The notes beneath the pieces were generated by a model. That model worked only from the letters and a program-made list of their open reading frames with translations. It did no database searches and was not told the origin of the DNA. From contig VLTN01000017.1 of NCBI GenBank assembly GCA_008330645.1, forward strand, positions 62,001 to 126,000: DNA of 64,000 nucleotides, written 5' to 3'. Below are positions 9,450-44,385 of the stretch, one piece after another. The translations under genes and the position numbers were made by a program. The DNA is from Cafeteria roenbergensis. Lineage: Eukaryota > Sar > Bigyra > Bicosoecida > Cafeteriaceae. Position 1 is the stretch's first letter. Each line of letters begins with the position of its first letter.

Positions 9450-9531
<82 letters not shown>

Positions 9532-22056: not shown

Positions 22057-25000
22057 ATGCCGCATCGCGGCTGGCCGGCATGGGCTTTCGCTGCAGCTGC
22101 GTGCGCGTCGCTTCAAGCAATTGCTGTCACGGCAGCGGCCTTCGAGACTGCTCCGCAAAAGTCAGTGACATTCTCAGGCATGCACGTCTCCGAGGACCAA
22201 GGCTGCACGGAGGGAGCCGCGGTGAGAGCAAGCGATAGGCGAGCAAGTCTTCGTCCCTCGGAAGTGTCGTCGCGCCCCCTGCAGTGCCTGCGTCAGCGTT
22301 GGCCAGAGTGTCTTCCCAGCCTCCCCCCCTCGTCGCAGTTGGTGGGACTTTCGGGGGCTCAAGTCGTCTACTCAGTCGTCAACAATGTACGCATCAAGGT
22401 GAGGACCAAACCCCAAGGGTGGCGCGTGGGCGTTCAGGGCGTGCCCCAGCTTGGTGTGTGTGGCGGGCTGCGCGAACAATATTTGCCTTTGCCAAGCATT
22501 TCGTTGCGAGGGCGCAGTTTGGAGCATCCGGCCCGAGCTACGGGCAAGGGGCCTTACCATCTGATCAGCTGGACGTCTGGCTTGGAGCCTTCGTATTGGC
22601 TCACACGGGAGGTGGCCAGTTCAACGTGACGTACATGCGCGGCAGTCGGTTGGCAGACCTCACCCCGTTGAGCGACGCCGCGTGGCTCAAGGGCGCAGAA
22701 GTAGTGTTCCCAACACAGCAGGACGTTGTCGTTGCACCCGGAGAGGTGCTCGCAATCGTAAACCGCAGGGGTCCGCTTGGCCTGGCAACAGCGTGCGGCG
22801 CATTCAGCTTGCAGGTCTCGGGGTTTTCGCTGCAATATTCGGCTCTGGAGGCTGCTTCCGCGACCACAGCCGGCTCCCGAGAAGCGCTCATTCTGCCCGG
22901 CCATCGCATTGTTGGAAGCATCGGGAGCACAATGCACTGGGGTTTGATGCCGCACATGTTTGCTGAGGGCGCAATGCCCCGTGTACCGACGCCAAAGTTC
23001 GCAAGCCTCCAGCAAGACCGGCTGCCATTCAACTCCAAGACATCGCTTCGCAGACAGGTGCTGGACTTCGTTGCCAGGGTTCCCAAACTGTGGCTCTTGT
23101 GCGAATGGAGATGCGTGCCTGCCGCCGCGGACCTGCATGTGGTGAACATCCAGGCGCAGATGTCGGTGACCGCCACCTCCCCGCCGTGCAGCGCAGGAGA
23201 CCCCGAGTGGTCGCAGCCCGTCACCGTCTCCATCGCGGACAAGTGCCCGCAGCACTCCGTCGACTCCCCGCTGGCCCTGGTGGTCAGGGCCCGCGCGTTT
23301 GCTGACACCATGTTGGGGTCCCCGCCCGCGTTCGCTTTGGTGATGCCGCTGCTGCCGTCCGACCTGGGGGTGACGATGCTGCTCGCCGGGGAGTCGGCGT
23401 CCCTGTGGGTGGCGTCAGCGAGCTCCCCTGCCTTGGCCGCCGCGACGCTGTGGCCGTTCGACCCTCATGCCGTGCCCGCGGCAGACACGAACGTGTCGGC
23501 GTTCCAGGGCAGCGCGGCCCTGCGAGTGACAGGCGCCGGGTCGCTTGTTCAGAGGTTCGCCTCGTCGCCAGCGGCTGCGGCGGGCGCAGTGGTGCTGCTA
23601 TGCTCCGTCGAGCAGGTGGGTGCGGCTGCGCCGCCAGCGAAGAACCTCACCCTGGCGGCCTGGGCGGCGGGAGGCAACGCCACCGCGTGGGACGGCGAGT
23701 CGTCGCAGCCGTTCGTCGCTGCTCTCGGGTGGCAGCAGTCCGCGACAGTCAAGGCGCTGGTCGTGCTCCACCGGCCGGGCCTGTTCCGGGTGTGCGGCCG
23801 GCTGCTGCTGGCCGACGCGCCCGAGCTGCGGAGCGGGTCGCCCGAGGTGCAGATGGACTCGAACCTCAGCTCGGCGGGCCTGGGCGCCATCTTGCTGTCG
23901 GGCCCGCGGATGGAGGCGGGACTGCATTCGTGCGTGCTGGTGTCCATCGAGGCGCCTGTGGTCGCGTTCACGCCCGGCGTCGCGGAGGAGAGCTCGACGG
24001 TGGAGGACGTGCTGCTGCCCGCCTGGATGGACCCGTCGCGGGACTCGAGCCTGTGGGACCCGCGCATGTGCGAGGAGGGCGCGGCGCGGATGCGGGCGGC
24101 GGGCATGCCCGTGGCGGCGGCGCGGGGCGCGGTGGCGTGCTCAGGCCGCGACTGGGCTCTGGGGCCGGGCAACGTCACCTCGTGGCTGAGCGCCTCAAGC
24201 GGGCGAGTAGCGAGGGTGCCGGTGATGCGGGTCAGCGCCTCCTCCATGCTGGCGCCCACCGTGACGGTGACGAGGTCGACCGGTGCAGCGGCGGTGTGGC
24301 CAGCAGTGGTGACGCAGATGGTCCAAGGCGGGGCGCCGTTCGCCCCGAAGACAACGCTGACGGTGATGGCCGCAGCTTCAATCACGATTGATATGGGGGG
24401 ACTGGGTCGGTGGGTGTTCCAGGTGCGGGATGTGCAGGCGGTTGGCTGCGGCTGGCAGGAGGTGATGTCGGGAGCGACGGGTTTCAGCCAGTTTGCGCTG
24501 CATCCGCCGTGGCTGCCGTGCTGCGAGGGCTGCGTGTCGTCCTTCGCGGTGGAGCAGTCGATGACGGTGCCTGCTCCCGTAGTCCCGCGAGCCTCGTATA
24601 CAAGCGACTGGGAGCTCCGTCCTGGGCTTGACCCGGCATATGCGTATGCCCAGGGCTTTCACCAGGGCCTGGATCACCTCGACGAGCTGCCGGCGATGGT
24701 CGCCCTGAAGCTGTCCATGACCACATGGCGCAAGCGCAACGTGACGGGCCCGTTCGAGGCGCGCATTCCGATCGCCTTCGACTGCCGGCTGGACATGCAG
24801 GTCGACATGGTCAGTGGGCTCGGGCCGCAGTGGGTGCCTGGCAGCATGGCCGGCAACTGGCGCGACCTCGGCGATGCCTTGGCTGGCGTGATGAACGGCA
24901 CCGGCGTTTGGAGCAGCGAGCGGCCGGACCCGTCCATGACGATCGACACCTCGACGCCCGACATCCTCTCGACCCGCCTGGGCCTGTGCGGGCGTGGTGC

Positions 25001-28000
25001 GGCTGTGGAGGACGGCTGGGCGAATCCGAGCGGCCTGGTGGCCAGCGGCACCATTCATTGGCTCAGAGCGGCCCAAGGCTTGCTGTGGACGAAGACAGTG
25101 GTGGCCCCCGAGTCGCGCTGGGCCAAGTACTTGATTGAGCAGGACCCGAATGGGTTTCAGCTCGGATGGCCAGCCACGCTCCGCGCGCCGCTGGCCGAGC
25201 GCCTGGACCCGCCGAGGTTCGAGCGCCCCTCGCACGCGGCTCTGCCCTCCGCGCCGATCACTCCCGGCTCGCGCTTCTCCCTCCGAGCGCTGGTGCCGTG
25301 GGTGCAGCTGCACTGCAAGCTGCCTCCGGGCTCCGCCTTGGTGCCGGGGCCCGACAGCGTGGGCCTCGAGGACGCGGGGGGCTGGTTCCCGTGCGGCGGC
25401 GAGTGGGGCGAGGGGACCTTCGTCCCGCCCCCGGGCGCGCTTGGGGGCAGTCTGGTGCTGCGGTCGGACTATGCCAGCCTCGTCCAGCCAGCCCCGACAT
25501 CGGCCAACGAAACGGAGTGCGCGGCCCTCCTCGCCCCGGGCGCGCCGTGGCTGACGGTGAGGGCCAGTGCGCTCACTTGGTCTTCGGCCGAAGGGCGCGT
25601 GGACTTTGGCTGCGGCATCGGAGGCGCCGAGGGGTCGAACGTGACCATCCCGGTTTCGGCACCGCCTCCTGTGCCCCTCAACCTGACCACCACGGTGGCG
25701 CCGAGCCATGTGGTGACGAACGCCGACCTGGACTCGGGGGCCTCGGCTCTGGGCGGGTCGGCGGTGCTGCAGGTGGGGCATGTGCTGTTCGTGGGGGCGG
25801 CCAACGCCAGCGGGGCTGCACAGGCCGGGGAGTCGGGCCAGGTGGCGATGTTTCGGCTGGAGCGGATGGACAACAGCTCCGGCACGCCCACGTTGCAGCG
25901 CCAGGGAGGCCTGCTTCGGCGCGAGTGGCTGCCCCGGGCGCCGTCGTTGCTGGGGGCGGGAGGCCTCAGCGAGCGGTTCGGCACCTCGCTCGCCCGCGTG
26001 CGGCTGTCGGGGGAGACCAGCGAGGCGAGTCTGGCCGGACTGCCCGACGCGCCGGCCACCACCTTCACGGTTGCAGTTGGCGCTCCGCGGGTCGGCGGCG
26101 GCGGCGGGGGGCTCGGTCGGGAGAGCGGCGGGGCGGTGGTGCTGTACCGCGTGCGCCAGGACACGCTGGAGGCGGAGTGGACGGACACGTGGCATGCGAA
26201 CGGCTCCGAGGTGCGGTGGGCCAGCGGCTCCAGGCTGGGCAAGGCGTGCGCCGCGATGGCCCGCGACGCCACTGGCGCCGGTGGCGTGGTCGGGCAGTCG
26301 GACGTGCTGGCTGCGGGCAGCGGGGTGGCAACGACGGAGGACTCGGTGCTGAACATCAGCGGCGCGACGCAGGGCGCGGTGGTGCTGCTCCGCGTGCAGC
26401 CGGACGGCAGGGTGGGGCCGCGCGGCGCCTCGCAGCTCGTCATCGCGGAGGGCACACCTGGGCTTCCGGGCGTGGCGGTGGAGTCCCCGGGCCCCAACAG
26501 GGCCGTGGTTGACAACTTCGGTCGTGCCATCGCGGCCCTGCCCGTGGGGACGGACCCGCTGAGCCCCAGTCTGCCGATGCTTGCTGTGACGGCGACGCAC
26601 GACAGCGGCGGCGCCGTGTGGCTGCTGACCATCAACGCGAGCGACTCGCAGTTCGACTCCGGGATCCACGGCGACGGCACGTTCCTTGTGCGCGCCTTCA
26701 AGCCCGTGGTCGCTGCGGACGCCTGGCCGGACCTGAGCTCACTGGTGTCCCGACTGGGGCCAAGGGTGGGTTACGCCGCCGACGCGCCGGGCGACCTCGA
26801 CGGGGACGGGGTGCCGGACCTGGTGCTGGGGTGCCCCTTCGCGGGTGAGCAGTACGACTCTCCGGTGGGCAGTAGAGGCGCCCTGCTCGTGCTGCACCTG
26901 GCCGTTGACGAGGCCACTGGGGCCATCGGCATTCGCGGGGGAACGCCGATCGGATCGGACGACGGGGAGCTGCTGAGCGGCGTGGCGGCGGACGGCGACA
27001 TGCTGGGCCTGTCGCTGACGACGCTGGCCCGTCCGGCTGGCTCGCGCGGTCGCGTGTTCGCGGTCGGCGCGCCGCGAGCCGGGTACGTAGCCATGGTTGG
27101 GGTGGACTCGTTCGCTTCGGCGGGCGCGGACAACGCGTTGCGTCCCGTGCCGACACTGCTGCCGTCGCCGTCGCCGTCCCCTACTGCATCCGTGTCACCG
27201 ACTGCATCTGTGTCGCCGAGCAGCTCGACAAGCACATCTCCATCCTCAACGCCGTCGGGCAGCTTCGTGCCACTGCCCTCACCATCAGCTACTGCCTCCC
27301 CCTCGCCGTCCGCATCGCCTAGCGTCACGGCAACGCCGTCCCCTTCGCTGTCTGCGACGCCCACAACGTCTCTCTCTCCCACGCCGTCTGCATCTGCCAC
27401 GGCATCGCCCTCCGTGACGTCATCGCCGTCTGCTTCTGCCTCCGTCACGCCGTCCGCCTCGGCCACGCCGTCCGCCTCGCCCTCACCCCAGCCGGCGACC
27501 TGTGCCCCGCTCACGGTCGCAGCCTCGTCTGCCCTCGAATGCACGCCGCCGGAGGGCGTGACGTCGCGCTACGATCTCGGCACGGAGTGCCGGCTGCGCT
27601 GCTCCCACGCCGTCACGGAGGGCGTGGAGGGCACGGGAGCGTGGCTGGGCGGCAGCGCGGTGCTGGACGTCCTCCTCCCCGGGCGCGAGCAGTCCAGCGT
27701 GACGGCCGCTGCGGGCCTGGGCGCATCGGGTGGCGGGAGCATCGCGCCCGGGGCGGGGCTCGTGGCGCCCGCCGTGGAGGTGGTGGTGCGCTGCGAGCTC
27801 GAGGGCGGCGGTGCCGGCGGCGGTGCCGGCGGTGGTGGCCTGGCGGTGTGGCGGTCTGGCGGCGTGGCGCTGGGAGCGGGGGCGCAGCTGCCCGAGTGTG
27901 TGCCGCTGTCCGCCCGCGAGCCCGGCCGCCCCGTGGTGCAGGCGTGCGCGCGGGCGGTGAGCGTGGAGGTTGAGCTCCCTGTGGGGGTGCGCGTGGGTGA

Positions 28001-31000
28001 CGCGGGTGTGGGGTCGATGCTGGAGCGCGTGGCTGGAGGCGGGTGGCCGGTGCCCGAGGGCGCGCCGTCGTGCTTGTCGGAGCGACAGGCGGCCGCCACG
28101 TTGGCCTGGGCGGATGGCGGCGGGGCGCAGGTGGGCCCGGGCCGCGTGCTGCTGTTCGCCATCGACGCGGACGAGGCGGAGCGGCTGGACGCGAACGGCT
28201 CGATCGTGGCCGGGCGGGTGCTGTTCGGGCAGCCCTCGTCCATCCGTGTCAGCGACCACACAGGGCTGCAGGGGGCGGATGTGGGGTGGGCGTGGCAGCT
28301 GGCCGACATCGGCCTGACGGGCGGCGCAGTGCCGACCAAGGCGAACGCCGAGCTGGTGGGGGAGGCCGCGCTGGAGGCGGGCGCCGTGGCGTCCGCGTCG
28401 CTGGGCCGCGCGGCGGCCGTATCGGCGGTGTTGGGGTTCGGCGGCGCGTCTGCGGGCTGTGGGGGCCGGCCGGTGGCGCTGGCTGGGCAGTCGTCGGTGC
28501 GGCTGACGGCCCGAGTCGTCCTGCCGGAGTCGATGCAGGGCCGGCGGCTGATGCTGGTTGCTGCCACGGGAGCGACCCAGCTGACCAGCGCGCCGGACGT
28601 CATGGTCGTCGGCCCGCCGTCGGCCGCGCTGCGGGTGCAGTCGGGCCTGTGCGACGCCCTGCCCATGTCGCTGGGCGTGCCGCGCGGTGCGAGCGGGCGG
28701 GAGGAGAGCACTGCGGCGCTGGTGCTGGCGGCGGCGGCGCCCCGCGCGCGGTTGAGCTTCGCGCTGCCTCGCGCTCCCGTGGCAGGGGAGGCCGTGGCGG
28801 TCGCGTGCGAGCCGCAGGACGGGCTGCTGGTGGTGGACGGCGGCGTGCAGCTGGTGCGTGCGAGCGGCTGGGGCTTGCCGTCCGGCCGATCGGCGGAGTT
28901 CAGCGTGAGCCTGGGGCCGGGGGCGGCGCTGCTGGCGTCGCAGGGCGAGAGCACGGTGGTGTGCGGCTTCGCGTCCACGGCTGATGAGGGCGCGGCCGTG
29001 GCGACTCGGCGCCTGGCTGCTCGACCCGGCGGCCGGGGCACGGCCAGCGACGACGATCTCGAGGCGCCGCCTGCGTCGCTGGGCGGGCTGCCCGGTCCGG
29101 TGGCAGGGGCCTTGTTCGCGGGGCTGCGGCCAGTGTCGCTGTCGGTGTCTGTGCTGCCGACCGTTGCAGCGGCGGTGGCGGATGTGCTGCTGGAGTCCCC
29201 CGGGCGCCAACGCGTCGGCGCCGCTGTCGGCCCGGTGGTACTCGGTGCGGTCGCCGAGCCGGTTCCTGACAGGGCGAGCCATCGCGGGTGCAGCGGCCGC
29301 AGGAGGCGGCGTCGGCGCGGCTGGCGGTGGCTTCGCGGTGCCCAGCGTCGGCGAGCTCGAGGGGGCGCTGGGGAGCCGGTGGTGGTCGGGCCCTGGCGCG
29401 TCGCTGGACCTGGGCGTGACGGCCAGCGGCGCCGCGCGGGCGCTGCTCGTGTGCTGGCGAGCGTCCACGCGGTGCTTCGAGGTCGGGACGAGAGTGCTGG
29501 TGGGGGCGAGCGAAGCCAACGTGACGGGGCTGTCGGCGGACGGCTCGGTGGCCCTGGTGGTGCTGCCGACGCAGCACGAGGCGTGTGTGATGGGCGGGCG
29601 GAGCAACGGCACAGCGGGCGACGTGCCCTGGCTGAGCGTGCCCCGGCGGGGCGGGGGCGAGGACGAGTGCGGGTGGCAGGCGGTCACCGTGGTTCCTGCC
29701 GCGGACGCGCGAGTGCCGGCCGTGTGGCGGCCTGCGGTGCGCGCGGGCCATCGGGCCGTGCCGCTGTGCCCCGGGCCGGCGCCAGCCCTCGAGCAGCTCC
29801 CGGTGGGGCGGCTGCCGCTGCTGTGCCTGACCGGGATGGAGCCAGGGCGGTCGCTGCCGGGCGACGGCGCGGCGCTGGTGGCGGCGCCGGTGGAGCTGAG
29901 CGCCGCGGCGCTTGAGGCAGGGTACGTCGCTGGCCCCCGCCGGCGTCGTCAGCGGGGAGCACCCTGCAGCGGGTGACGCTGGCGAGCGGGGCGGCCGTGT
30001 CGCAGGCGCTGGCGGTGTTCTACACCAGCAGCTGCGCCGGCTTCGAGTCCCCCGGCCCGGCGTGCGCCGACGTGTCGCGAGTGCTGTCGGGCGAGTCGCG
30101 GTGCGCGTTCGGGGCCGGGGACGGCTGCCGGCCGTGCGGTGCGCTGTGCCCGGCCGGGTTCGGGGCGTGCGCGGTGTGCCCGGGCGGGTTTCGTCACCAC
30201 CCGTTGCCCGGGTTCTGGTCGGCCGACGAGGACTCCGGGGCTGTGCTGCGGTGCGCGCCCCCGGCCGAGCGCCGCTGCCCGGGCTGGAGCGGGGCGGAGG
30301 CGCGCAGCACTTGCGGGGAGGGCTTCACGGGTCGGGCGTGCGCGCAGTGCGAGTCCGGGTTCTTCTCCCACTCGGTGGTGGGGTGCGAGCGGTGCCCATC
30401 CGGGACGCCGGCAGAGCTGCTTGTGATGCCGGTGCTGCTGTACGGGGGCCTGGCCGCGGGCCTGTGCGGGTCGGGCCTTGCGCTGTTCGGGCTGATGCAG
30501 TGCTTGGCGCCGGCGCAGGACAGGCGGGAGGCGCTGCGGCGATCGGCGCTGGCAGCGGCTGGGGAGCAGGGGCTGCAGGGCGAAGCCGCGGCGGAATCTG
30601 CCAGGGCCAAGGTGTCCCGGCTGCTGGCCAAGCGGGGTGGCGACGTGCCGCGCTGCGCGTGCGACGGCGGCGCTGCTCGGCGCGCGGCCGGGCGCGCGTT
30701 GCAGCTGGCGCTGTGGTCGGTGCTGAGCGTGCAGGCGCTGGTGCAGGTGTCGCGCACGCTGGCGCCCGGCGTGCCTTCCGTGGTGGCGTCGGTGTTCGGC
30801 GTGCTGTCGGTGTTTGAGCTGTCGCCGTCGGTGGCCGTGCCCCCGCAGTGTCTGACCACGGCGCCGCTCGCCGTTGAGACGGCGGTGCTTTGCGCGGTGC
30901 TCGGTCTGGGGGCGACGCTGGGCGTGGCGGCGGCGGTCGTGCTCGGCTGCCACACGCGCGACGCCCGGCCGTGGGGGTGCGGCGGGCTGGCTGCGCGGGC

Positions 31001-32912
31001 GGTGCCGGCGCTGTTCGGGCTGGCGGCCGTGACGTACGCGCTGGGCACCAACACGGCGGTGGCGGTGCTGCACTGCCTGGACCTGCCCGCCGACGGGGTG
31101 GAGGGGCCTGTGATGGCATCGAACCCGTTCGTGCGCTGCGGCGGCGAGGAGCACACGAGGGCGGTCCCGCTTGCGGTGTCGCTGCTGGTGGTGGTGAGCG
31201 GCGGCTTGCCGGTCGGGACGCTGGTGTTCGCGTGGGCCCGCACTCGGACGGTGCTCCGTGGCGTGCTCGCGAGGGAGCCCGAGGCCGCCGACGGGGGCGG
31301 GAGCAGCAGCGACGTTGCGCGCAGTGCGGGCGATGCGGCGGACTGCAAGGCCCTCGAGGGCGCGGGGCCGGGGCCCGTCCGCGGGCGCTGGAGCCGGCGA
31401 CAGGTGAGGTCCAGCCGCGCGGGTCGTCGGGCATCGGTGGCGGACCTGCTGCGAAGCGAGTCGGTCGCGACCCTGGCGGGTCCGGGCCGTAAGCAGACAA
31501 GCCATCCGGCAGTGGCCCGGCCACTGGCGTCGGCGCCCCGTGGCCCGCAGGTGCAGGCGGGGCGAGTGGCTGGCCAGGCGGAGCAGGCACCGGCTCTGAT
31601 GTCCAACCCGCTGGCGCGCGGCGGTGGGAGGGCGCCGGCACCGGTGCCGCCGAGGCCCACGCGGCGGGCGGGCAGCATGGCCTGGCAGCGGTCGGATGCG
31701 CTCGCGCTGGTGAAACGCGGCGCGTCGTCGGGGCCGCGGGTGGCGGCGGTGCCAGGCGAGGCGGGCGCTGGCCCGGCGGCCGAGCCGGGGCGGAGAGAGC
31801 GGCGCTCGAGGCTGCGAGGGGGCTGCCCGTGGTCCGGCCGCAGGACCCCTCCGGCCGCCCCTGGCGCCCCGCTGACGCTGGGCTCGCTTCTGGACTCGAG
31901 CCGGACCGTGCGGGGCGACCGGGCGCTGGGCCCGTGCGTGGCCCGCGACTACCGTCCGTCCCGGGGCTGGCACATCCCGGCGGGTCTGCTGTCCGTCGGG
32001 ATCATGGGGGCCGCGGGGGAGGTGCTGGTGGCGTCGCCGGTGCGGTCGTGGGTGGGGGTGCTGCTGAGCACGCTGCTGGTGACGGCGCTGTGTGTGGCGC
32101 TGTCGGCGGCGGTGCTGTGCGACCAGCCGTACGCGCCGGGCCACCTGTGGAAGCGCTGGCTTCGGGCGCTCACCCTGCTGCTGGCGGCGCTGACGGCGTG
32201 GCTGAACATGACGCAGCTGTCGGCGTCTGGCGGTCTGCCGCCGCCCGAGGAGGGCGCGGGGAGCATCGCGGCGGATGCGGTCGCGGCGGTGGCCGTGCTG
32301 CCGCTGTCGTTCATGGCGCTGGTGCTGAGCTGCCTGCTGGTGGGGGCCGTGGCGGGCGCGATCGTGGGCGCGCTTGGCCGGGACACGGCGGTGGCGGTGC
32401 TGCTTGAGCGGCGGGTGTGGCCGGCGTTGTGCAGCATCTGCTGCTGCTGCTGTTGCGAGCGCTTGTGCCGGCGCGGGCAGGGTGGCGACGCCACCGCCAA
32501 GGCTGGGAGGCGGGGAGGCGGCAAGTCGGCGCAAGTGGGGGGGGCGCGGCTTTCGGCCCCGCCGCCTGCCGAGTTGGCGGATGCCTTGTCGCCAGCAGTG
32601 CGTCCGGGGAGTGCGGGCTCCCAGGCCGCCCAGAAGGCCGCCAGGGCGCCAGCAGACGGGCGTGGCGGCGCCCCTGGCCGCATGCGTCCGACTGCTTCGC
32701 TCTCCCGGCCGCGCCTCTCGCTCCACCCTGCCGCGCTGACCCATGCCTCATCGCGCGTGCTGGGCAGTGGTGGAGGGGCGGCCGCCGGGGTGCCCACGAG
32801 CGAAGGGCTGGCGCTTCCGGCCCTGGTGTCTCGTCGGTTGCTGCTGGTGCCCGACCGCTCGGAACGAGAGTCCGGGACGGTGTCGGGGGGCAAGTCGCGC
32901 GTGCGTGCGTGA
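22057..32912 (+). CDS. Giant FG-GAP/multi-helix surface protein, copy A (frame-disrupted)
   Basis: Exons 22057-22221 (signal peptide), 22339-22398 and 22518-32912, all phase 0 with GTGAG/GCAG borders, deduced by alignment with copy B. Domain order is as in copy B: N-terminal ectodomain, FG-GAP region with the calcium loop GDLDGDGVPD (DNA about 26790), Ser/Thr/Pro stalk (27150-27500), Cys-rich module (30026-30410), about nine helices, tail. Compared with copy B, the C-run at 29197-29201 has one extra base and that at 29934-29938 has two, so about 240 codons are read out of frame and the normal frame then resumes. As written, translation would end at 29915 and lose the Cys-rich and membrane parts. 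This may be sequencing error in C-runs, a young pseudogene, or a secreted short form. Residues from FGASGPS to the start of the shared block differ strongly from copy B. Confidence 0.75.
23101..32528 (+). repeat. 9.4-kb near-identical direct repeat, unit A
   Basis: From 23101 onward the sequence matches 34295 onward almost base for base until 32528 (partner 43722), after which both flanks diverge abruptly. The offset is 11,194 bp at both ends; small indels in between (a 3-bp difference near 24600, extra Cs near 29200 and 29935, two extra codons in B near 43640) cancel. It covers most of the large exon but excludes both ends of the gene. Confidence 0.97.
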
Positions 32913-33215
32913 TGTGGAGGTGTTGTGTGTGTTGTATTCGTGCCGGCCGGGCATGGCGTGACGGCGCCGTGTTGCAGCAAATTCGAAACGGCTCCAGACT
33001 CGCGTTGCCGCGATTGTCGGCTGCAGAGCTGCTTGACACTGCTCCGGCCAAAGGAGCTCGCGGCGCTTTCGCGGCAAACGCCCGCGTCAGCCCCTCCACT
33101 TCTGTCCCAGACCGAGGCCACGCGTGGCCGTCGTGGGGCTTCTGTGGCAGCTGGGCGGGTGGAGGCAGGCGGTCGCACGGCCTGGGCGCAAGGGATGCGC
33201 GGCGGCGGCCGAGTG
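32913..33215. other. Spacer between the two giant genes
   Basis: 303 bp between the stop of copy A and the chosen ATG of copy B. It should include the copy A terminator and the copy B promoter. No repeat or RNA gene is visible, and it does not resemble the region upstream of copy A. Confidence 0.45.
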
Positions 33216-36200
33216 ATGACATGCCGGGCAGCAGTCGCGCTGCTCTTCCTCGTCGCCTCTTGCGCGTTTCCGGGCCTGGCGGCGGTGTTGTCAGACTCGG
33301 AGGACATCGCGGTGTTTTTCAGCGGGCGCACAGCCGCCAGCGACCTCAGGGCTGCCCCGGAAGCTTCAGTGAGCGGTCGTCGCGATTGTTCGGCTGAGCC
33401 AAATCGCTCGCTCAGCGAAAGTTGCCACGTCGCGCACCAATCGTCGTTCTGCGATGGCCGCCGCCGACCGTGCCCTCGTTTCCCGCAGTTGATGGGCCTC
33501 CAGTCGACCTCGACAAAGGTGCTCGAAGTCTCCGCGGTCACTGTCACGGTGAGGCCGCGTGCCGGCCGGCTTGTGTTCCTGGCTGCCTCTCAAGCCTCGG
33601 CACCGTCATCGAGCCTTGCCGCCATGGCGTGCCGGCGCCACCCGAGCCGCGCGATTCCGTCGCCGCGCCCTACCCTTGCAGTTTGGGGCCTCCGGGCCGA
33701 GCTTCGGGTCCGATGCGGAGCCCTCGCGCAATGCCAGTCTGTGGGTGGCGGCGCTTCTGCCGAACAGGTGGTTGCCGGTGAACTTGACCTTGATGCGAGC
33801 TGCCAAGTCGTCCGTGACCACGCCCTTCGCTGACGAGAGCGACTTCCACGACGCCGAGCTGCTGTTGCCCGTGTCCCCACCCATGCTGCTGCTGCCGGGT
33901 GAGGTGCTGGGCGTGTTCAACGCATGGGGCCCTCTCAACGCCAGGACCTTCGACGAGGCTCTCAGCTCCTCCGATGGCGACGGGGGCGCCACCCCACTTA
34001 GACTGGACGAGTTCGCGTTCATGGTCGACCACTCGGTCCTGCAGGCAGCAGCATCTGAGTATAACCTCTCCGTCCCTGTGGTGCCGCGGCCGGACACAGT
34101 CATCAGTGCAGCCAGTTTCACATCCAAGAGCCAGGGCGTGTCTGCCGCAATTGAGGCGAGCATGTCCATCGCACGGATGGCCAGGCCTACGCTTGCTGTC
34201 AATGGCACCATGCCTGTCAGCGTGGCGTCGACGGTCGACATCAGCCGGGGCGCGATGCCTGCTTGGCCTGCAGTCGGCCAGCTTGAGCTCCGCTGCGAAT
34301 GGAGATGCGTGCCTGCCGCCGCGGACCTGCATGTGGTGATCATCCAGGCGCAGATGTCGGTGACCGCCACCTCCCCGCCGTGCAGCGCGGGAGACCCCGA
34401 GTGGTCGCAGCCCGTCACCGTCTCCATCGCGGACAAGTGCCCGCAGCACTCCGTCGACTCCCCGCTGGCCCTGGTGGTCAGGGCCCGCGCGTTCGCCGAC
34501 ACCATGTTGGGGTCCCCGCCCGCGTTCGCTTTGGTGATGCCGCTGCTGCCGTCCGACCTGGGGGTGACGATGCTGCTCGCCGGGGAGTCGGCGTCCCTGT
34601 GGGTGGCGTCAGCGAGCTCCCCTGCCGTGGCCGCCGCGACGCTGTGGCCGTTCGACCCTGATGCCGTGCCCGCGGCAGACACGAACGTGTCGGCGTTCCA
34701 GGGCAGCGCGGCCCTGCGAGTGACAGGCGCTGGGTCGCTTGTTCAGAGGTTCGCCTCGTCGCCAGCGGCTGCGGCGGGCGCAGTGGTGCTGCTATGCTCC
34801 GTCGAGCAGGTGGGTGCGGCTGCGCCGCCAGCGAAGAACCTCACCCTGGCGGCCTGGGCGGCGGGAGGCAACGCCACCGCGTGGGACGGCGAGTCGTCGC
34901 AGCCGTTCGTCGCTGCTCTCGGGTGGCAGCAGTCCGCGACAGTCAAGGCGCTGGTCGTGCTCCACCGGCCGGGCCTGTTCCGGGTGTGCGGCCGGCTGCT
35001 GCTGGCCGACGCGCCCGAGCTGCGGAGCGGGTCGCCCGAGGTGCAGATGGACTCGAACCTCAGCTCGGCGGGCCTGGGCGCCATCTTGCTGTCGGGCCCG
35101 CGGATGGAGGCGGGACTGCATTCGTGCGTGCTGGTGTCCATCGAGGCGCCTGTGGTCGCGTTCACGCCCGGCGTCGCGGAGGAGAGCTCGACGGTGGAGG
35201 ACGTGCTGCTGCCCGCCTGGATGGACCCGTCGCGGGACTCGAGCCTGTGGGACCCGCGCATGTGCGAGGAGGGCGCGGCGCGGATGCGGGCGGCGGGCAT
35301 GCCCGTGGCGGCGGCGCGGGGCGCGGTGGCGTGCTCAGGCCGCGACTGGGCTCTGGGGCCGGGCAACGTCACCTCGTGGCTGAGCGCCTCAAGCGGGCGA
35401 GTAGCGAGGGTGCCGGTGCTGCGGGTCAGCGCCTCCTCCATGCTGGCGCCCACCGTGACGGTGACGAGGTCGACCGGTGCAGCGGCGGTGTGGCCAGCAG
35501 TGGTGACGCAGATGGTCGAAGGCGGGGCGCCGTTCGCCCCGCAGACGACGCTGACGGAGATGTTACACCCGGCGGCTGTACTGCCAGTTGGTGGACTGGG
35601 TCGGTGGGTGTTCCAGGTGCGGGATGTGCAGGCGGTTGGCTGCGGCTGGCAGGAGGTGATGTCGGGAGCGACGGGTTTCAGCCAGTTTGCGCTGCATCCG
35701 CCGTGGCTGCCGTGCTGCGAGGGCTGCGTGTCGTCCTTCGTGGTGGAGCAGTCGATGACGGTGCGTGCTCCCAGAGTCCCGCGGCAGCCCGCTGGCGACA
35801 AGGAGCTCCGTCCTGGGCTTGACCCGGCATATGCGTATGCCCAGGGCTTTCACCAGGGCCTGGATCACCTCGACGAGCTGCCGGCGATGGTCGCCCTGAA
35901 GCTGTCCATGACCACATGGCGCAAGCGCAACGTGACGGGCCCGTTCGAGGCGCGCATTCCGATCGCCTTCGACTGCCGGCTGGACATGCAGGTCGACATG
36001 GTCAGTGGGCTCGGGCCGCAGTGGGTGCCTGGCAGCATGGCCGGCAACTGGCGCGACCTCGGCGATGCCTTGGCTGGCGTGATGAACGGCACCGGCGTTT
36101 GGAGCAGCGAGCGGCCGGACCCGTCCATGACGATCGACACCTCGACGCCCGACATCCTCTCGACCCGCCTGGGCCTGTGCGGGCGTGGTGCGGCTGTGGA

Positions 36201-39200
36201 GGACGGCTGGGCGAATCCGAGCGGCCTGGTGGCCAGCGGCACCATTCATTGGCTCAGAGCGGCCCAAGGCTTGCTGTGGACGAAGACAGTGGTGGCCCCC
36301 GAGTCGCGCTGGGCCAAGTACTTGATTGAGCAGGACCCGAATGGGTTTCAGCTCGGATGGCCAGCCACGCTCCGCGCGCCGCTGGCCGAGCGCCTGGACC
36401 CGCCGAGGTTCGAGCGCCCCTCGCACGCGGCTCTGCCCTCCGCGCCGATCACTCCCGGCTCGCGCTTCTCCCTCCGAGCGCTGGTGCCGTGGGTGCAGCT
36501 GCACTGCAAGCTGCCTCCGGGCTCCGCATTGGTGCCGGGGCCCGACAGCGTGGGCCTCGAGGACGCGGGGGGCTGGTTCCCGTGCGGCGGCGAGTGGGGC
36601 GAGGGGACCTTCGTCCCGCCCCCGGGCGCGCTTGGGGGCAGTCTGGTGCTGCGGTCGGACTATGCCAGCCTCGTCCAGCCAGCCCCGACATCGGCCAACG
36701 AAACGGAGTGCGCGGCCCTCCTCGCCCCGGGCGCGCCGTGGCTGACGGTGAGGGCCAGTGCGCTCACTTGGTCTTCGGCCGAAGGGCGCGTGGACTTTGG
36801 CTGCGGCATCGGAGGCGCCGAGGGGTCGAACGTGACCATCCCGGTTTCGGCACCGCCTCCTGTGCCCCTCAACCTGACCACCACGGTGGCGCCGAGCCAT
36901 GTGGTGACGAACGCCGACCTGGACTCGGGGGCCTCGGCTCTGGGCGGGTCGGCGGTGCTGCAGGTGGGGCATGTGCTGTTCGTGGGGGCGGCCAACGCCA
37001 GCGGGGCTGCACAGGCCGGGGAGTCGGGCCAGGTGGCGATGTTTCGGCTGGAGCGGATGGACAACAGCTCCGGCACGCCCACGTTGCAGCGCCAGGGAGG
37101 CCTGCTTCGGCGCGAGTGGCTGCCCCGGGCGCCGTCGTTGCTGGGGGCGGGAGGCCTCAGCGAGCGGTTCGGCACCTCGCTCGCCCGCGTGCGGCTGTCG
37201 GGGGAGACCAGCGAGGCGAGTCTGGCCGGACTGCCCGACGCGCCGGCCACCACCTTCACGGTTGCAGTTGGCGCTCCGCGGGTCGGCGGCGGCGGCGGGG
37301 GGCTCGGTCGGGAGAGCGGCGGGGCGGTGGTGCTGTACCGCGTGCGCCAGGACACGCTGGAGGCGGAGTGGACGGACACGTGGCATGCGAACGGCTCCGA
37401 GGTGCGGTGGGCCAGCGGCTCCAGGCTGGGCAAGGCGTGCGCCGCGATGGCCCGCGACGCCACTGGCGCCGGTGGCGTGGTCGGGCAGTCGGACGTGCTG
37501 GCTGTGGGCAGCGGGGTGGCAACGACGGAGGACTCGGTGCTGAACATCAGCGGCGCGACACAGGGCGCGGTGGTGCTGCTCCGCGTGCAGCCGGACGGCA
37601 GGGTGGGGCCGCGCGGCGCCTCGCAGCTCGTCATCGCGGAGGGCACACCTGGGCTCCCGGGCGTGGCGGTGGAGTCCCCGGGCCCCAACAGGGCCATGTT
37701 CGACAACTTCGGTCGTGCCATCGCGGCCCTGCCCGTGGGGACGGACCCGCTGAGCCCCAGTCTGCCGATGCTTGCTGTGACGGCGACGCACGACAGCGGC
37801 GGCGCCGTGTGGCTGCTGACCATCAACGCGAGCGACTCGCAGTTCGACGCTGGGATCCACGGCGACGGCACGTTCCTTGTGCGCGCCTTCAAGCCCGTGG
37901 TCGCTGCGGACGCCTGGCCGGACCTGAGCTCACTGGTGTCCCGACTGGGGCCAAGGGTGGGTTACGCCGCCGACGCGCCGGGCGACCTCGACGGGGACGG
38001 GGTGCCGGACCTGGTGCTGGGGTGCCCCTTCGCGGGTGAGCAGTACGACTCTCCGGTGGGCAGTAGAGGCGCCCTGCTCGTGCTGCACCTGGCCGTTGAC
38101 CAGGCCACTGGGGCCATCGGCATTCGCGGGGGAACGCCGATCGGATCGGACGACGGGGAGCTGCTGAGCGGCGTGGCGGCGGACGGCGACATGCTGGGCC
38201 TGTCGCTGACGACGCTGGCCCGTCCGGCTGGCTCGCGCGGTCGCGTGTTCGCGGTCGGCGCGCCGCGAGCCGGGTACGTAGCCTTGGTTGGGGTGGACTC
38301 GTTCGCTTCGGCGGGCGCGGACAACGCGTTGCGTCCCGTGCCGACACTGCTGCCGTCGCCGTCGCCGTCCCCTACTGCATCCGTGTCACCGACTGCATCT
38401 GTGTCGCCGAGCAGCTCGACAAGCACATCTCCATCCTCAACGCCGTCGGGCAGCTTCGTGCCACTGCCCTCACCATCAGCTACTGCCTCCCCCTCGCCGT
38501 CCGCATCGCCTAGCGTCACGGCAACGCCGTCCCCTTCGCTGTCTGCGACGCCCACAACGTCTCTCTCTCCCACGCCGTCTGCATCTGCCACGGCATCGCC
38601 CTCCGTGACGTCATCGCCGTCTGCTTCTGCCTCCGTCACGCCGTCCGCCTCGGCCACGCCGTCCGCCTCGCCCTCACCCCAGCCGGCGACCTGTGCCCCG
38701 CTCACGGTCGCAGCTTCGTCTGCCCTCGAATGCACGCCGCCGGAGGGCGTGACGTCGCGCTACGATCTCGGCACGGAGTGCCGGCTGCGCTGCTCCCACG
38801 CCGTCACGGAGGGCGTGGAGGGCACGGGAGCGTGGCTGGGCGGCAGCGCGGTGCTGGACGTCCTCCTCCCCGGGCGCGAGCAGTCCAGCGTGACGGCCGC
38901 TGCGGGCCTGGGCGCATCGGGTGGCGGGAGCATCGCGCCCGGGGCGGGGCTCGTGGCGCCCGCTGTGGAGGTGGTGGTGCGCTGCGAGCTCGAGGGCGGC
39001 GGTGCCGGCGGCGGTGCCGGCGGTGGTGGTCTGGCGGTGTGGCGGTCTGGCGGCGTGGCGCTGGGAGCGGGGGCGCAGCTGCCCGAGTGTGTGCCGCTGT
39101 CCGCCCGCGAGCCCGGCCGCCCCGTGGTGCAGGCGTGCGCGCGGGCGGTGAGCGTGGAGGTTGAGCTCCCTGTGGGGGTGCGCGTGGGTGACGCGGGTGT

Positions 39201-42200
39201 GGGGTCGATGCTGGAGCGCGTGGCTGGAGGCGGGTGGCCGGTGCCCGAGGGCGCGCCGTCGTGCTTGTCGGAGCGACAGGCGGCCGCCACGTTGGCCTGG
39301 GCGGATGGCGGCGGGGCGCAGGTGGGCCCGGGCCGCGTGCTGCTGTTCGCCATCGACGCGGACGAGGCGGAGCGGCTGGACGCGAACGGCTCGATCGTGG
39401 CCGGGCGGGTGCTGTTCGGGCAGCCCTCGTCCATCCGTGTCAGCGACCACACAGGGCTGCAGGGGGCGGATGTGGGGTGGGCGTGGCAGCTGGCCGACAT
39501 CGGCCTGACGGGCGGCGCAGTGCCGACCAAGGCGAACGCCGAGCTGGTGGGGGAGGCCGCGCTGGAGGCGGGCGCCGTGGCGTCCGCGTCGCTGGGCCGC
39601 GCGGCGGCCGTATCGGCGGTGTTGAGGTTCGGCGGCGCGTCTGCGGGCTGTGGGGGCCGGCCGGTGGCGCTGGCTGGGCAGTCGTCGGTGCGGCTGACGG
39701 CCCGAGTCGTCCTGCCGGAGTCGATGCAGGGCCGGCGGCTGATGCTGGTTGCTGCCACGGGAGCGACCCAGCTGACCAGCGCGCCGGACGTCGTGGTCGT
39801 CGGCCCGCCGTCGGCCGCGCTGCGGGTGCAGTCGGGCCTGTGCGACGCCCTGCCCATGTCGCTGGGCGTGCCGCGCGGTGCGAGCGGGCGGGAGGAGAGC
39901 ACTGCGGCGCTGGTGCTGGCGGCGGCGGCGCCCCGCGCGCGGTTGAGCTTCGCGCTGCCTCGCGCTCCCGTGGCAGGGGAGGCCGTGGCGGTCGCGTGCG
40001 AGCCGCAGGACGGGCTGCTGGTGGTGGACGGCGGCGTGCAGCTGGTGCGTGCGAGCGGCTGGGGCTTGCCGTCCGGCCGATCGGCGGAGTTCAGCGTGAG
40101 CCTGGGGCCGGGGGCGGCGCTGCTGGCGTCGCAGGGCGAGAGCACGGTTGTGTGCGGCTTCGCGTCCACGGCTGATGAGGGCGCGGCCGTGGCGACTCGG
40201 CGCCTGGCTGCTCGACCCGGCGGCCGGGGCACGGCCAGCGACGACGATCTCGAGGCGCCGCCTGCGTCGCTGGGCGGGCTGCCCGGTCCGGTGGCAGGGG
40301 CCTTGTTCGCGGGGCTGCGGCCAGTGTCGCTGTCGGTGTCTGTGCTGCCGACCGTTGCAGCGGCGGTGGCGGATGTGCTGCTGGAGTCCCCGGGCGCCAA
40401 CGCGTCGGCGCCGCTGTCGGCCCGGTGGTACTCGGTGCGGTCGCCGAGCCGGTTCCTGACAGGGCGAGCCATCGCGGGTGCAGCGGCCGCAGGAGGCGGC
40501 GTCGGCGCGGCTGGCGGTGGCTTCGCGGTGCCCAGCGTCGGCGAGCTCGAGGGGGCGCTGGGGAGCCGGTGGTGGTCGGGCCCTGGCGCGTCGCTGGACC
40601 TGGGCGTGACGGCCAGCGGCGCCGCGCGGGCGCTGCTCGTGTGCTGGCGAGCGTCCACGCGGTGCTTCGAGGCCGGGGCGAGAGTGCTGGTGGGGGCGAG
40701 CGAAGCCAACGTGACGAGGCTGTCGGCGGACGGCTCGGTGGCCCTGGTGGTGCTGCCGACGCAGCACGAGGCGTGTGTGATGGGCGGGCGGAGCAACGGC
40801 ACAGCGGGCGACGTGCCCTGGCTGAGCGTGCCCCGGCGGGGCGGGGGCGAGGACGAGTGCGGGTGGCAGGCGGTCACCGTGGTTCCTGCCGCGGACGCGC
40901 GAGTGCCGGCCGTGTGGCGGCCTGCGGTGCGCGCGGGCCATCGGGCCGTGCCGCTGTGCCCCGGGCCGGCGCCAGCCCTCGAGCAGCTCCCGGTGGGGCG
41001 GCTGCCGCTGCTGTGCCTGACCGGGATGGAGCCAGGGCGGTCGCTGCCGGGCGACGGCGCGGCGCTGGTGGCGGCGCCGGTGGAGCTGAGCGCCGCGGCG
41101 CTTGAGGCAGGGTACGTCGCTGGCCCGCCGGCGTCGTCAGCGGGGAGCACCCTGCAGCGGGTGACGCTGGCGAGCGGGGCGGCCGTGTCGCAGGCGCTGG
41201 CGGTGTTCTACACCAGCAGCTGCGCCGGCTTCGAGTCCCCCGGCCCGGCGTGCGCCGACGTGTCGCGAGTGCTGTCGGGCGAGTCGCGGTGCGCGTTCGG
41301 GGCCGGGGACGGCTGCCGGCCGTGCGGTGCGCTGTGCCCGGCCGGGTTCGGGGCGTGCGCGGTGTGCCCGGGCGGGTTTCGTCACCACCCGTTGCCCGGG
41401 TTCTGGTCGGCCGACGAGGACTCCGGGGCTGTGCTGCGGTGCGCGCCCCCGGCCGAGCGCCGCTGCCCGGGCTGGAGCGGGGCGGAGGCGCGCAGCACTT
41501 GCGGGGAGGGCTTCACGGGTCGGGCGTGCGCGCAGTGCGAGTCCGGGTTCTTCTCCCACTCGGTGGTGGGGTGCGAGCGGTGCCCATCCGGGACGCCGGC
41601 AGAGCTGCTTGTGATGCCGGTGCTGCTGTACGGGGGCCTGGCCGCGGGCCTGTGCGGGTCGGGCCTTGCGCTGTTCGGGCTGATGCAGTGCTTGGCGCCG
41701 GCGCAGGACAGGCGGGAGGCGCTGCGGCGATCGGCGCTGGCAGCGGCTGGGGAGCAGGGGCTGCAGGGCGAAGCCGCGGCGGAATCTGCCAGGGCCAAGG
41801 TGTCCCGGCTGCTGGCCAAGCGGGGTGGCGACGTGCCGCGCTGCGCGTGCGACGGCGGCGCTGCTCGGCGCGCGGCCGGGCGCGCGTCGCAGCTGGCGCT
41901 GTGGTCGGTGCTGAGCGTGCAGGCGCTGGTGCAGGTGTCGCGCACGCTGGCGCCCGGCGTGCCTTCCGTGGTGGCGTCGGTGTTCGGCGTGCTGTCGGTG
42001 TTTGAGCTGTCGCCGTCGGTGGCCGTGCCCCCGCAGTGTCTGACCACGGCGCCGCTCGCCGTTGAGACGGCGGTTCTTTGCGCGGTGCTTGGTCTGGGGG
42101 CGACGCTGGGCGTGGCGGCGGCGGTCGTGCTCGGCTGCCACACGCGCGACGCCCGGCCGTGGGGGTGCGGCGGGCTGGCTGCGCGGGCGGTGCCGGCGCT

Positions 42201-44208
42201 GTTCGGGCTGGCGGCCGTGACGTACGCGCTGGGCACCAACACGGCGGTGGCGGTGCTGCACTGCCTGGACCTGCCCGCCGACGGGGTGGAGGGGCCTGTG
42301 ATGGCATCGAACCCTTTCGTGCGCTGCGGCGGCGAGGAGCACGCGAGGGCGGTCCCGCTTGCGGTGTCGCTGCTGGTGGTGGTGAGCGGTGGCTTGCCGG
42401 TCGGGACGCTGGTGTTCGCGTGGGCCCGCACTCGGACGGTGCTCCGTGGCGTGCTCGCGAGGGAGCCCGAGGCCGCCGACGGGGGCGGGGGCAGCAGCGA
42501 CGTTGCGCGCAGTGTGGGCGATGCGGCGGACTGCAAGGCCCTCGAGGGCGCGGGGCCGGGGCCCGCCCGCGGGCGCTGGAGCCGGCGGCAGGTGAGGTCC
42601 AGCCGCGCGGGTCGTCGGGCATCGGTGGCGGACCTGTTGCGAAGCGAGTCGGTCGCGACCCTGGCGGGTCCGGGCCGTAAGCAGACAAGCCATCCGGCAG
42701 TGGCCCGGCCCCTAGTGTCGGCGCCCCGTGGCCCGCAGGTGCAGGCGGGGCGAGTGGCTGGCCAGGCGGAGCAGGCACCGGCTCTGATGTCCAACCCGCT
42801 GGCGCGCGGCGGTGGGAGGGCGCCGGCACCGGTGCCGCCGAGGCCCACGCCGCGGGCGGGCAGCATGGCCTGGCAGCGGTCGGATGCGCTCGCGCTGGTG
42901 AAGCGCGGCGCGTCGTCGGGGCCGCGGGTGGCGGCGGTGCCAGGCGAGGCGAGCGCTGGCCCGGCGGCCGAGCCGGGGCGGAGAGAGCGGCGCTCGAGGC
43001 TGCGAGGGGGCTGCCCGTGGTCCGGCCGCAGGACCCCTCCGGCCGCCCCTGGCGCCCCGCTGACGCTGGGCTCGCTTCTGGACTCGAGCCGGACCGTGCG
43101 GGGCGACCGGGCGCTGGGCCCGTGCGTGGCCCGCGACTACCGTCCGTCCCGGGGCTGGCACATCCCGGCGGGTCTGCTGTCCGTCGGGATCATGGGGGCC
43201 GCTGGGGAGGTGCTGGTGGCGTCGCCGGTGCGGTCGTGGGTGGGGGTGCTGCTGAGCACGCTGCTGGTGACGGCGCTGTGTGTGGCGCTGTCGGCGGCGG
43301 TGCTGTGCGACCAGCCGTACGCGCCGGGCCACCTGTGGAAGCGCTGGCTTCGGGCGCTCACCCTGCTGCTGGCGGCGCTGACGGCGTGGCTGAACATGAC
43401 GCAGCTGTCGGCGTCTGGCGGTCTGCCGCCGCCCGAGGAGGGCGCGGGGAGCATCGCAGCGGATGCGGTCGCGGCGGTGGCCGTGCTGCCGCTGTCGTTC
43501 ATGGCGCTGGTGCTGAGCTGCCTGCTGGTGGGGGCCGTGGCGGGCGCGATCGTGGGCGCGCTTGGCCGGGACACGGCGGTGGCGGTGCTGCTTGAGCGGC
43601 GGGTGTGGCCGGCGTTGTGCAGCATCTGCTGCTGCTGCTGTTGCTGTTGCGAGAGCTTGTGCCGGCGCGGGCAGGGTGGCGACGCCACCGCCAAGGCTGG
43701 GAGGCGGGGGGGCGGCAAGTCGATGGAGGTTGGGGGGCCGCAGATCGTGAGTCATCCGCACCCTGCGATCGTGGCTTCCTTGTCACGTTCGACATTGCTT
43801 TCGATCGACAACGCCGGCAGCTGCATTGGTTCAAAGCCGGAGAGTGTCGCAAGCAGTGCCAACGCTTCATCATTTGGTGAACCACGGGAAAGTGGCGAGT
43901 TGCTGTTGGCGCAAAGCAGCACTGCACCGACTGAAGTGCCTGCTGGCAGTGGGCAAGGCCATCGCCAATCACAGACCGTCCCGCTGCCACAGCCACGGGG
44001 GCGGGCGCGCCTGTCGCTGATGCCGCAGTTGCTCACACCCTCTCCTCCTGCGATGCCGCTTGCTCGAGGAACGCCCGCAAGGACCCAGACCCGCAATGCG
44101 AAGCTGCTTCCGCCGGCCATGGACATGCCGGCAGCGCTTCAGGCCACTGGTCGACTGGACCGCGATTCGTTGACTGTCTCGGGAGGCAAGTCCCGCGTGC
44201 GTGGGTGA
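33216..44208 (+). CDS. Giant FG-GAP/multi-helix surface protein, copy B (intact)
   Basis: Exons 33216-33368, 33489-33548 and 33682-44208 join in phase 0 to 3579 residues. Residues 1-23 are a signal peptide (AAVALLFLVASCAFPG). Residues 72-276 are a copy-specific N-terminal region. Residues 1150-1610 hold FG-GAP/integrin-alpha-like segments (FGTSLARV, VAVGAPR) and one canonical calcium loop DLDGDGVPD. Residues 1625-1742 are a Ser/Thr/Pro stalk. Residues 2585-2712 are Cys-rich (CRPCGALC, TCGEGFTGRACAQC, CERCPSGT). About nine membrane helices span 2712-3385, with a Ser/Arg-rich loop between the sixth and seventh. The tail 3419-3579 is copy-specific and ends TVSGGKSRVR plus Gly. The architecture suggests a calcium-dependent adhesion or receptor protein of the plasma membrane. 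I do not recognise a named family, and partners are unknown. The ATG at 33216 is chosen because it opens a signal peptide. Confidence 0.85.
34295..43722 (+). repeat. 9.4-kb near-identical direct repeat, unit B
   Basis: Partner of 23101-32528. Differences are scattered single substitutions, two short clustered patches (35558-35592 and 35765-35801) and a Cys-codon length difference near 43640. Sequence outside the block on both sides is only distantly related, so the block is better explained by gene conversion or unequal exchange than by one whole-gene duplication. Confidence 0.97.
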
Positions 44209-44385
44209 CTGAATTTGTTGTTGTTTTTGATGAGGAGTCCGTTTCCTCGAACTTGTCCAGCCTGACCCTGCGTTTGCTTTCGTGGTCAAATCTCATCGCT
44301 GACTCCCCGAGTGTGCCGACTGGCCACGCGGAACAGTCAACGCAAAAAATGCTGGCCTAGCCCGTGACCCCACCTAGCTCCCCGA

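What the first reader, a model, noticed from the sequence alone, without database searches (positions are those of the whole stretch)
23101..43722. Tandem giant surface-protein genes kept nearly identical over 9.4 kb
Two neighbouring, same-strand genes share a central block (23101-32528 and 34295-43722) that is almost identical, while both ends of the genes are only distantly related. The abrupt edges inside coding sequence point to gene conversion or unequal exchange acting on the middle of an old duplicate pair. Direct repeats of this size would also recombine, yielding chimeras with the N-terminus of one gene and the tail of the other, so the locus could generate cell-surface diversity.
Basis: partly seen in the sequence, partly recalled or inferred. 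Interest (0 to 1): 0.82.

Follow-up and report, generated by a model that had tools for sequence, protein, structure and literature searches.

The report
Tandem giant genes sharing one core
Two neighbouring giant genes, probably for cell-surface proteins of a marine flagellate, are old and distinct relatives whose long middle part seems to have been copied recently from one to the other, an ordinary genetic process on a large and sharply bounded scale.

Summary
23097-32528 and 34291-43722 are 99.2% identical (99.43% outside one patchy zone), with edges sharp to about 30 nt. On either side, heads (85/296 identical residues) and tails (41/127) are old, and both genes share an intron position. 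The genome is very probably Cafeteria roenbergensis (burkhardae), perhaps strain BVI. The genes belong to a family of at least five giant proteins with an integrin-like FG-GAP stretch, Ser/Pro/Thr stalk and several membrane spans; two more loci match in the membrane region only. Best explanation: ectopic gene conversion, or paired unequal crossovers, recently homogenised the core of an old tandem pair and stopped where the genes are too different to pair. Silent divergence in the core is about 1%, near strain-level divergence; two islands of old divergence survive inside it. As assembled, copy 1 is frameshifted at two C-runs (assembly error or decay). Chimeras and surface diversity are not shown: in this assembly there are two cores and their ends are in parental arrangement. 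A new member of a known kind (concerted evolution of tandem duplicates), resting on one draft assembly.

The parts
22057..22398 (+). copy 1, candidate exon 1 (start Met inferred; signal-peptide-like N-terminus)
   Evidence: Open frame ending at a GTGAGG donor, phase 0 by its coordinates; aligns with copy 2 exon 1 at 30/105 identical residues, 0 of 500 shuffles as good
22399..22517 (+). copy 1, candidate phase-0 intron, 119 nt (GTGAGG..GCAG)
   Evidence: Same place and phase as in copy 2; no transcript seen
22518..23096 (+). copy 1, diverged N-terminal head in exon 2, outside the homogenised block
   Evidence: Besides itself it matches only copy 2 in the genome, 37% over 97 aa
23097..32528 (+). 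copy 1, homogenised core block
   Evidence: 99.2% identical to 34291-43722
24324..24612 (+). copy 1, zone with two islands of old divergence inside the block (about 24324-24405 and 24571-24610); copy 2 counterpart about 35518-35803
   Evidence: Difference list; the frame is kept, about 10-15 residues are replaced in each, and the second also differs by one codon in length
29197..29934 (+). copy 1, stretch read out of frame relative to copy 2, between one extra C and two extra C in C-runs; stop at 29913-29915
32529..32912 (+). copy 1, diverged C-terminal (presumed cytosolic) tail
   Evidence: 41/127 identical residues to the copy 2 tail, 0 of 500 shuffles as good
33216..33548 (+). copy 2, candidate exon 1 (Met at 33216; alternative at 33195)
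33549..33681 (+). copy 2, candidate phase-0 intron, 133 nt (GTGAGG..GCAG)
33682..34290 (+). copy 2, diverged N-terminal head in exon 2
   Evidence: The query 33559-34290 matches only itself and copy 1 in the genome, 35% over aa 19-135
34291..43722 (+). copy 2, homogenised core block, intact reading frame
36940..38346 (+). copy 2, FG-GAP/integrin-alpha-like region (Pfam stretch 37975-38055)
   Evidence: Pfam FG-GAP E 0.0027, below its cut-off; family profile A1 against PDB, best E 5.7e-06, 51 of 53 listed sequences integrin alpha chains
38347..38676 (+). copy 2, Ser/Pro/Thr-rich stalk; identical in copy 1 (27156-27485)
   Evidence: Translation; no difference listed there
41314..41600 (+). copy 2, Cys-rich juxtamembrane stretch
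   Evidence: Translation; within the 581-aa query that matches C79, C44, C6 and C34 at 45-53%; alignment with C6 seen
41605..43659 (+). copy 2, eight or nine hydrophobic candidate membrane spans (the ninth includes the poly-Cys run)
   Evidence: Hydropathy scan, 9 of its 13 peaks; the other 4 lie N-terminal of the Cys-rich stretch
43723..44208 (+). copy 2, diverged C-terminal tail ending in SGGKSRVR plus one residue, as in copy 1

Best explanation
Two old tandem paralogs of a giant surface-protein family exchanged sequence recently. The 9.4 kb core was overwritten in one gene by the other's copy, through ectopic gene conversion or two unequal crossovers that leave two genes. Exchange stopped on both sides where the genes had become too different to pair: the N-terminal head (with exon 1 and intron) and the tail after the last membrane span. 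Two short islands that escaped, and somewhat uneven spacing of the other differences, suggest more than one tract. Shown: identity, edges, islands, old homology of the ends, about 1% silent divergence. Inferred: the recombination route, its direction, why it stopped, and that both genes act as surface receptors or adhesins with one scaffold and different heads and tails.
For: The block is 99.43% identical outside the islands. Heads (85/296) and tails (41/127) are far diverged but score above all of 500 shuffles each, and the genes share a phase-0 intron position. Besides itself, each exon-2 head matches only its partner in the genome, so the ends were not recently taken from another member held in the assembly. 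Silent sites in the block differ by 0.99%, while introns, spacer and upstream DNA give no blastn match (E up to 1e-5, over 60 nt). In the local alignment of copy 1 with the C6 paralog, homology begins at a Cys motif at 23100, the 5' edge; with copy 2 the same comparison began later, at about 34684. The 3' edge falls about 60 nt after the last hydrophobic span. The all-site difference of 0.57% is below the 0.78-0.95% between strains by ANI (99.05-99.22%; only the pair Cflag/RCC970-E3 is closer, 99.67%; PMC6972860) and below the 1.25-1.49% of an apparent allele pair at the sister locus C44/C77. The differences look constrained: 26 replacements of 52, against 35.1 expected in a simple mutation model, P 0.006.
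Against: One draft assembly only, built by Canu from raw PacBio reads and polished by read mapping; polishing can pull near-identical copies together, so 99.43% may be too high. Clustering of differences is modest: CV of gaps P 0.029, longest clean run P 0.13. Direction and number of events are unknown. GC3 is higher in the block (0.885) than in the ends (0.63-0.78) and in four family ORFs (0.70-0.80), as GC-biased conversion would give. But 300-nt bins of block and ends overlap, and nine other window ORFs span 0.65-0.91, so this is not decisive.
Confidence: 0.78

Rival explanations
1. Assembly artefact: one gene was duplicated in the assembly, or two merely similar cores were made more alike by polishing.
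For: Canu on raw PacBio RS II reads, then Racon with reads placed by mapping; the repeat is about as long as typical reads of that platform (recalled, from no call). Copy 1's two frame-breaking differences are both in C-runs, as residual long-read errors would be. A sister family member appears broken over two contig ends, C44/C77.
Against: The heads and the spacer are different sequences with no second near-identical copy in the assembly, so this is not one locus written twice. Polishing cannot turn unrelated DNA into 99% identity with sharp edges. 52 substitutions and two diverged islands separate the copies.
Confidence: 0.12
2. Recent whole-gene tandem duplication whose ends then diverged quickly, or were replaced by pieces of other family members.
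For: The core differs by under 1%; the family has other members that could donate ends.
Against: Ends, introns and spacer give no DNA match to each other, and neither exon-2 head matches another place in the genome except the partner. Such divergence, non-coding DNA included, is not expected while silent sites in the core change by 1%.
Confidence: 0.05
3. An exchange system under selection that keeps the scaffold alike and the heads and tails different, so that surface variants arise by recombination.
For: Edges fall near domain limits, head/core and last membrane span/tail. The differences look constrained. Stalk length differs by about 1.2 kb between the two contig ends of the sister locus, so the family does vary.
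Against: No chimera or third core copy was found in the assembly; edges where homology ends are expected without selection; copy 1 may not be intact.
Confidence: 0.05

Closest known systems
Concerted evolution of tandem duplicates by ectopic gene conversion or unequal crossing-over (reviews PMC3924832 and PMC3924838; only the start of each abstract seen, in the listing)
   Same: Old tandem paralogs, a recently homogenised internal segment, sharp edges inside coding sequence, diverged flanks
   Different: A 9.4 kb tract in one giant exon of a protist gene, bounded near domain limits, with islands of old divergence inside
Integrin alpha chains (FG-GAP beta-propeller)
   Same: FG-GAP calcium-loop pattern; profile match to integrin alpha V, IIb, 5, 4 and 6
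   Different: Many membrane-span candidates, Cys-rich stretch and Ser/Pro/Thr stalk; the best matches cover one loop region (profile positions about 313-357)
Antigen-gene recombination systems of parasites (trypanosome VSG, Pneumocystis MSG; recalled, not looked up)
   Same: Recombination among surface-protein genes
   Different: No silent donor array, expression site or chimera seen here; the host is a free-living bacterivore

Membership tests
Concerted evolution by ectopic gene conversion / unequal crossover | Two paralogs in one genome share a segment far more alike than the rest, silent sites included | tested here: met
   0.57% difference and pS 0.0099 in the core, against heads with 85/296 and tails with 41/127 identical residues
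Concerted evolution by ectopic gene conversion / unequal crossover | Abrupt tract edges | tested here: met
   30-nt steps at both edges
Concerted evolution by ectopic gene conversion / unequal crossover | Paralogs closer to each other than to their orthologues in other strains | not testable with these tools
   No other Cafeteria assembly is offered by the collections; only the published genome-wide ANI was compared
Surface-antigen diversity generator | Chimeric or switched variants, donors or an expression site | tested here: inconclusive
   In this one assembly: two core copies, heads unique, parental arrangement; reads and other strains not available
FG-GAP / integrin alpha-like propeller protein | FG-GAP repeats with the calcium loop | tested here: inconclusive
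   Pfam FG-GAP below its cut-off (18 against 22.1 bits); family profile hits integrin alpha chains, E down to 5.7e-06, about one loop; the single-sequence fold failed, pLDDT 31.8
Cys-rich Pfam families of the Ephrin_rec_like / GCC2_GCC3 type (names recalled) | Match to a Pfam model | tested here: not met
   None in copy 2 at E up to 10, in copy 1's downstream part at E up to 0.001, or in the six pieces of C79, C44, C34 and C77 at E up to 0.5. C6 and C55 were not scanned (one search failed)

The most novel reading that the evidence does not exclude
A free-living phagotroph keeps a pair of giant integrin-like surface proteins as one shared scaffold with two sets of interchangeable heads and tails. 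Recurrent exchange, halted at the domain borders, maintains the scaffold and at times shuffles heads with tails, for prey recognition or escape from viruses such as CroV.
Probability: 0.08. Interest if true: 0.65.

Novelty: new member of a known kind. Interest (0 to 1): 0.36.

Why it matters
It is a clean natural case in which the edges of a very long recombination tract fall near protein-domain limits, in a stramenopile with no known sexual cycle (PMC6972860). Four sequenced strains with public reads make it directly testable whether exchange is ongoing and whether heads and tails ever recombine. It also warns that near-identical giant genes in such drafts may carry frame errors. If the genes are receptors they would be candidates for how this bacterivore recognises prey or viruses; that is speculation here.

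Tried and rejected
Intron explanation for the islands: rejected. Both islands keep the frame, and I saw no splice borders at the first island in copy 1 (my reading of the letters, not a program).

Recently replaced ends: rejected, no donor for the exon-2 heads in the genome. Exon 1 and the tails were not searched on their own.

GC-biased conversion as proof: GC3 is raised in the block, but its bins overlap those of the ends and other window ORFs overlap its range, so it is not used as proof.

Structure: a single-sequence fold of the FG-GAP region failed, mean pLDDT 31.8, so no fold search was run. Paralog rows were not sent to the folding tool, because its rule does not list loci of the genome search.

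Relatives in viral contigs: none for one core piece. The genome-contig collection was not scanned, as it holds bacteria and archaea.

Annotation: Pfam gives nothing above cut-off for either gene. For the pieces of C79, C44, C34 and C77 it gives one match above cut-off, DUF4774 in C34 (33.1 against 25 bits, but no stretch significant on its own), and two below cut-off, Phage_holin_2 and Cornifin; none was informative. One PDB search with copy 2 alone gave a single weak hit, E 0.21.

Literature: 3 papers hold 'Cafeteria roenbergensis' and 'gene conversion'; by the titles and abstract starts in the listing none concerns this locus, and none was opened. 'FG-GAP' + 'heterotrophic flagellate' + 'integrin' gave none. 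Searches were seen as listings only; of the papers listed only PMC6972860 was opened (parts 1-3 of 5). 'Cafeteria burkhardae' was not searched together with 'gene conversion'.
Full report
WHERE IT IS. The window is contig C17, 62001-126000, of a 36,303,456-base genome in 167 contigs, with a GC of 0.53-0.79 per kilobase. That fits Cafeteria roenbergensis, called C. burkhardae in later papers (titles), whose four drafts are 34-36 Mb at 70-71% GC. The nearest by size is strain BVI: 36,327,047 bases, 170 contigs (PMC6972860, parts 1-3 of 5 of the text read). One TBP primer printed there matches the genome once, without mismatch, and a second lies close by. The reverse primer was not found in the 3 kb held around them. 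Species and strain are thus inferences, the strain the weaker one. Of eight neighbouring ORFs scanned, three have strong Pfam matches to ordinary eukaryotic proteins (DDB1/CPSF1-type propellers, class II tRNA synthetase, PRP38), one a weak EF-hand match below cut-off, and four none.

THE OBSERVATION. Two same-strand genes share 23097-32528 and 34291-43722. Of 9418 aligned positions 9343 are identical; if the zone 24324-24612 is left out, 52 of 9140 differ. Edges are sharp to about 30 nt; outside them identity in register falls to about the level of random pairs, at once at the 5' edge and within about 60 nt at the 3' edge. A 1 kb probe from the block finds these two places only, and a 1.5 kb probe from the spacer and head of copy 2 finds only itself.

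GENE MODELS. Upstream of the large ORF of each gene is a short open frame with a signal-peptide-like start, a GTGAGG donor and a CAG acceptor. By their coordinates both introns are phase 0 at the same protein position, 119 nt in copy 1 and 133 nt in copy 2. No transcript evidence was available. The joined heads align at 85 of 296 residues and the tails at 41 of 127; none of 500 shuffles did as well in either case. Both proteins end in SGGKSRVR plus one residue, and [ST]RVR recurs within ten residues of the C-terminus in C79, C44 and C34, but not in C6 or at the end of the C55 ORF: five of seven ends seen. So both genes are old relatives along their length, and only the middle is young.

THE FAMILY. 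Own-genome searches find relatives of the extracellular part on C79, C77, C6 and C44, at 29-39% identity, and of the Cys-rich and membrane part on C79, C44, C6 and C34 at 45-53%, with a shorter match on C55. The end of C44 and the start of C77 overlap at 98.5% (75 mismatches in 5042) and 98.7% (10 in 798), with about 1.2 kb more stalk repeats in C77. I read these as two alleles or overlapping ends of one locus; a second near-identical pair is not excluded. The count is then five genes with both parts (the C17 pair, C79, C6, C44/C77), and C34 and C55 with the membrane part only. The tool gives lower bounds, and two larger C-terminal queries got no answer.

WHAT THE PROTEIN LOOKS LIKE. From N to C: a head; a region shared with C6, where the local alignment with copy 1 starts at the Cys motif of the 5' block edge, though with copy 2 it started later; an FG-GAP stretch; a Ser/Pro/Thr stalk; a Cys-rich stretch; eight or nine hydrophobic spans; and a tail. 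A profile of five family sequences (A1) finds 53 PDB sequences at E up to 5, of which 51 are integrin alpha chains, best E 5.7e-06; the best matches cover one calcium-loop region, and the 51 are variants of a few proteins. Pfam's FG-GAP match alone is below its cut-off. A fold without relatives failed. 'Surface protein' is therefore a reasoned inference, not a test.

HOW IT AROSE. Silent sites in the core differ by 0.99% and replacement sites by 0.40%, ratio 0.41. In a simple mutation model 35.1 of 52 changes would be replacements; 26 were seen, P 0.006. Hence the two cores separated recently, and at least one has probably stayed under constraint since. The all-site difference, 0.57%, is less than that between BVI and the other strains (0.78-0.95%, from the genome-wide ANI; the pair Cflag/RCC970-E3 differs by only 0.33%) and less than at C44/C77. 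Old divergence survives in two islands within 300 nt, and the other differences are somewhat clustered: CV of gaps P 0.029 but longest clean run P 0.13; of 43 events, 12 fall in one of ten equal bins and none in another (not tested). This fits one or a few tracts of gene conversion, or two unequal crossovers with the same result. The tract ends where pairing would fail, which is also near where the protein's domains change; selection need not be invoked for the edges.

COPY 1. Relative to copy 2 it has one extra C in a C-run at about 29197 and two more at about 29934. Between them the frame is lost and a stop occurs at 29913-29915. Copy 2's frame is the one that aligns with the C6 paralog through this stretch. 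Residual long-read error in a repeat that short reads cannot resolve is, in my judgement, at least as likely as real decay; I did not restore the frame.

WHAT IS NOT SHOWN. No chimeric gene, third copy or strain difference was seen, and none could be looked for beyond this one assembly. The diversity idea stays possible but unsupported. The finding is real, striking in scale and sharpness, and of a known kind.

On going through the calls again I lowered the family count from six to five genes with both parts, since C34 matched only in the membrane region; the odds did not need to change.

Noticed in passing
C44:301249-307113 and C77:1 to about 7050 (L018, L038, L015): Two contig ends overlap at about 98.5% within another member of the same giant family and differ by about 1.2 kb of stalk tandem repeats: probably two alleles of one gene with a length polymorphism, left unmerged in the assembly.
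   Followed up: partly
C-terminal ends of copy 1 (32912), copy 2 (44208), C79, C44, C34: A short [ST]RVR motif lies within ten residues of the C-terminus in five of seven family ends seen, although the rest of the tail is diverged; absent in C6 and C55. Possibly a sorting or binding motif.
   Followed up: partly
window 20484-20841: 6.6 tandem copies of a 54-nt unit, 98% matches, in a 506-aa ORF (20088-21608) just upstream of the pair; no Pfam match at E up to 0.001.
   Followed up: no
window 57102-57320: 6.4 tandem copies of a 34-nt unit, 96% matches; the unit is not a multiple of three.
   Followed up: no
window 4720-12918 (-) and 13087-19533 (+): Two very long ORFs (2732 and 2148 aa), head to head, without a Pfam match, upstream of the pair.
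   Followed up: no
C6 about 767500-769420 (L016), C79 about 43860-44870 (L013), C77 about 730-1800 (L015): Family members carry tandem arrays with self matches of about 0.9-1.8 kb in the gene region, unlike the short stalk of the C17 pair.
   Followed up: no
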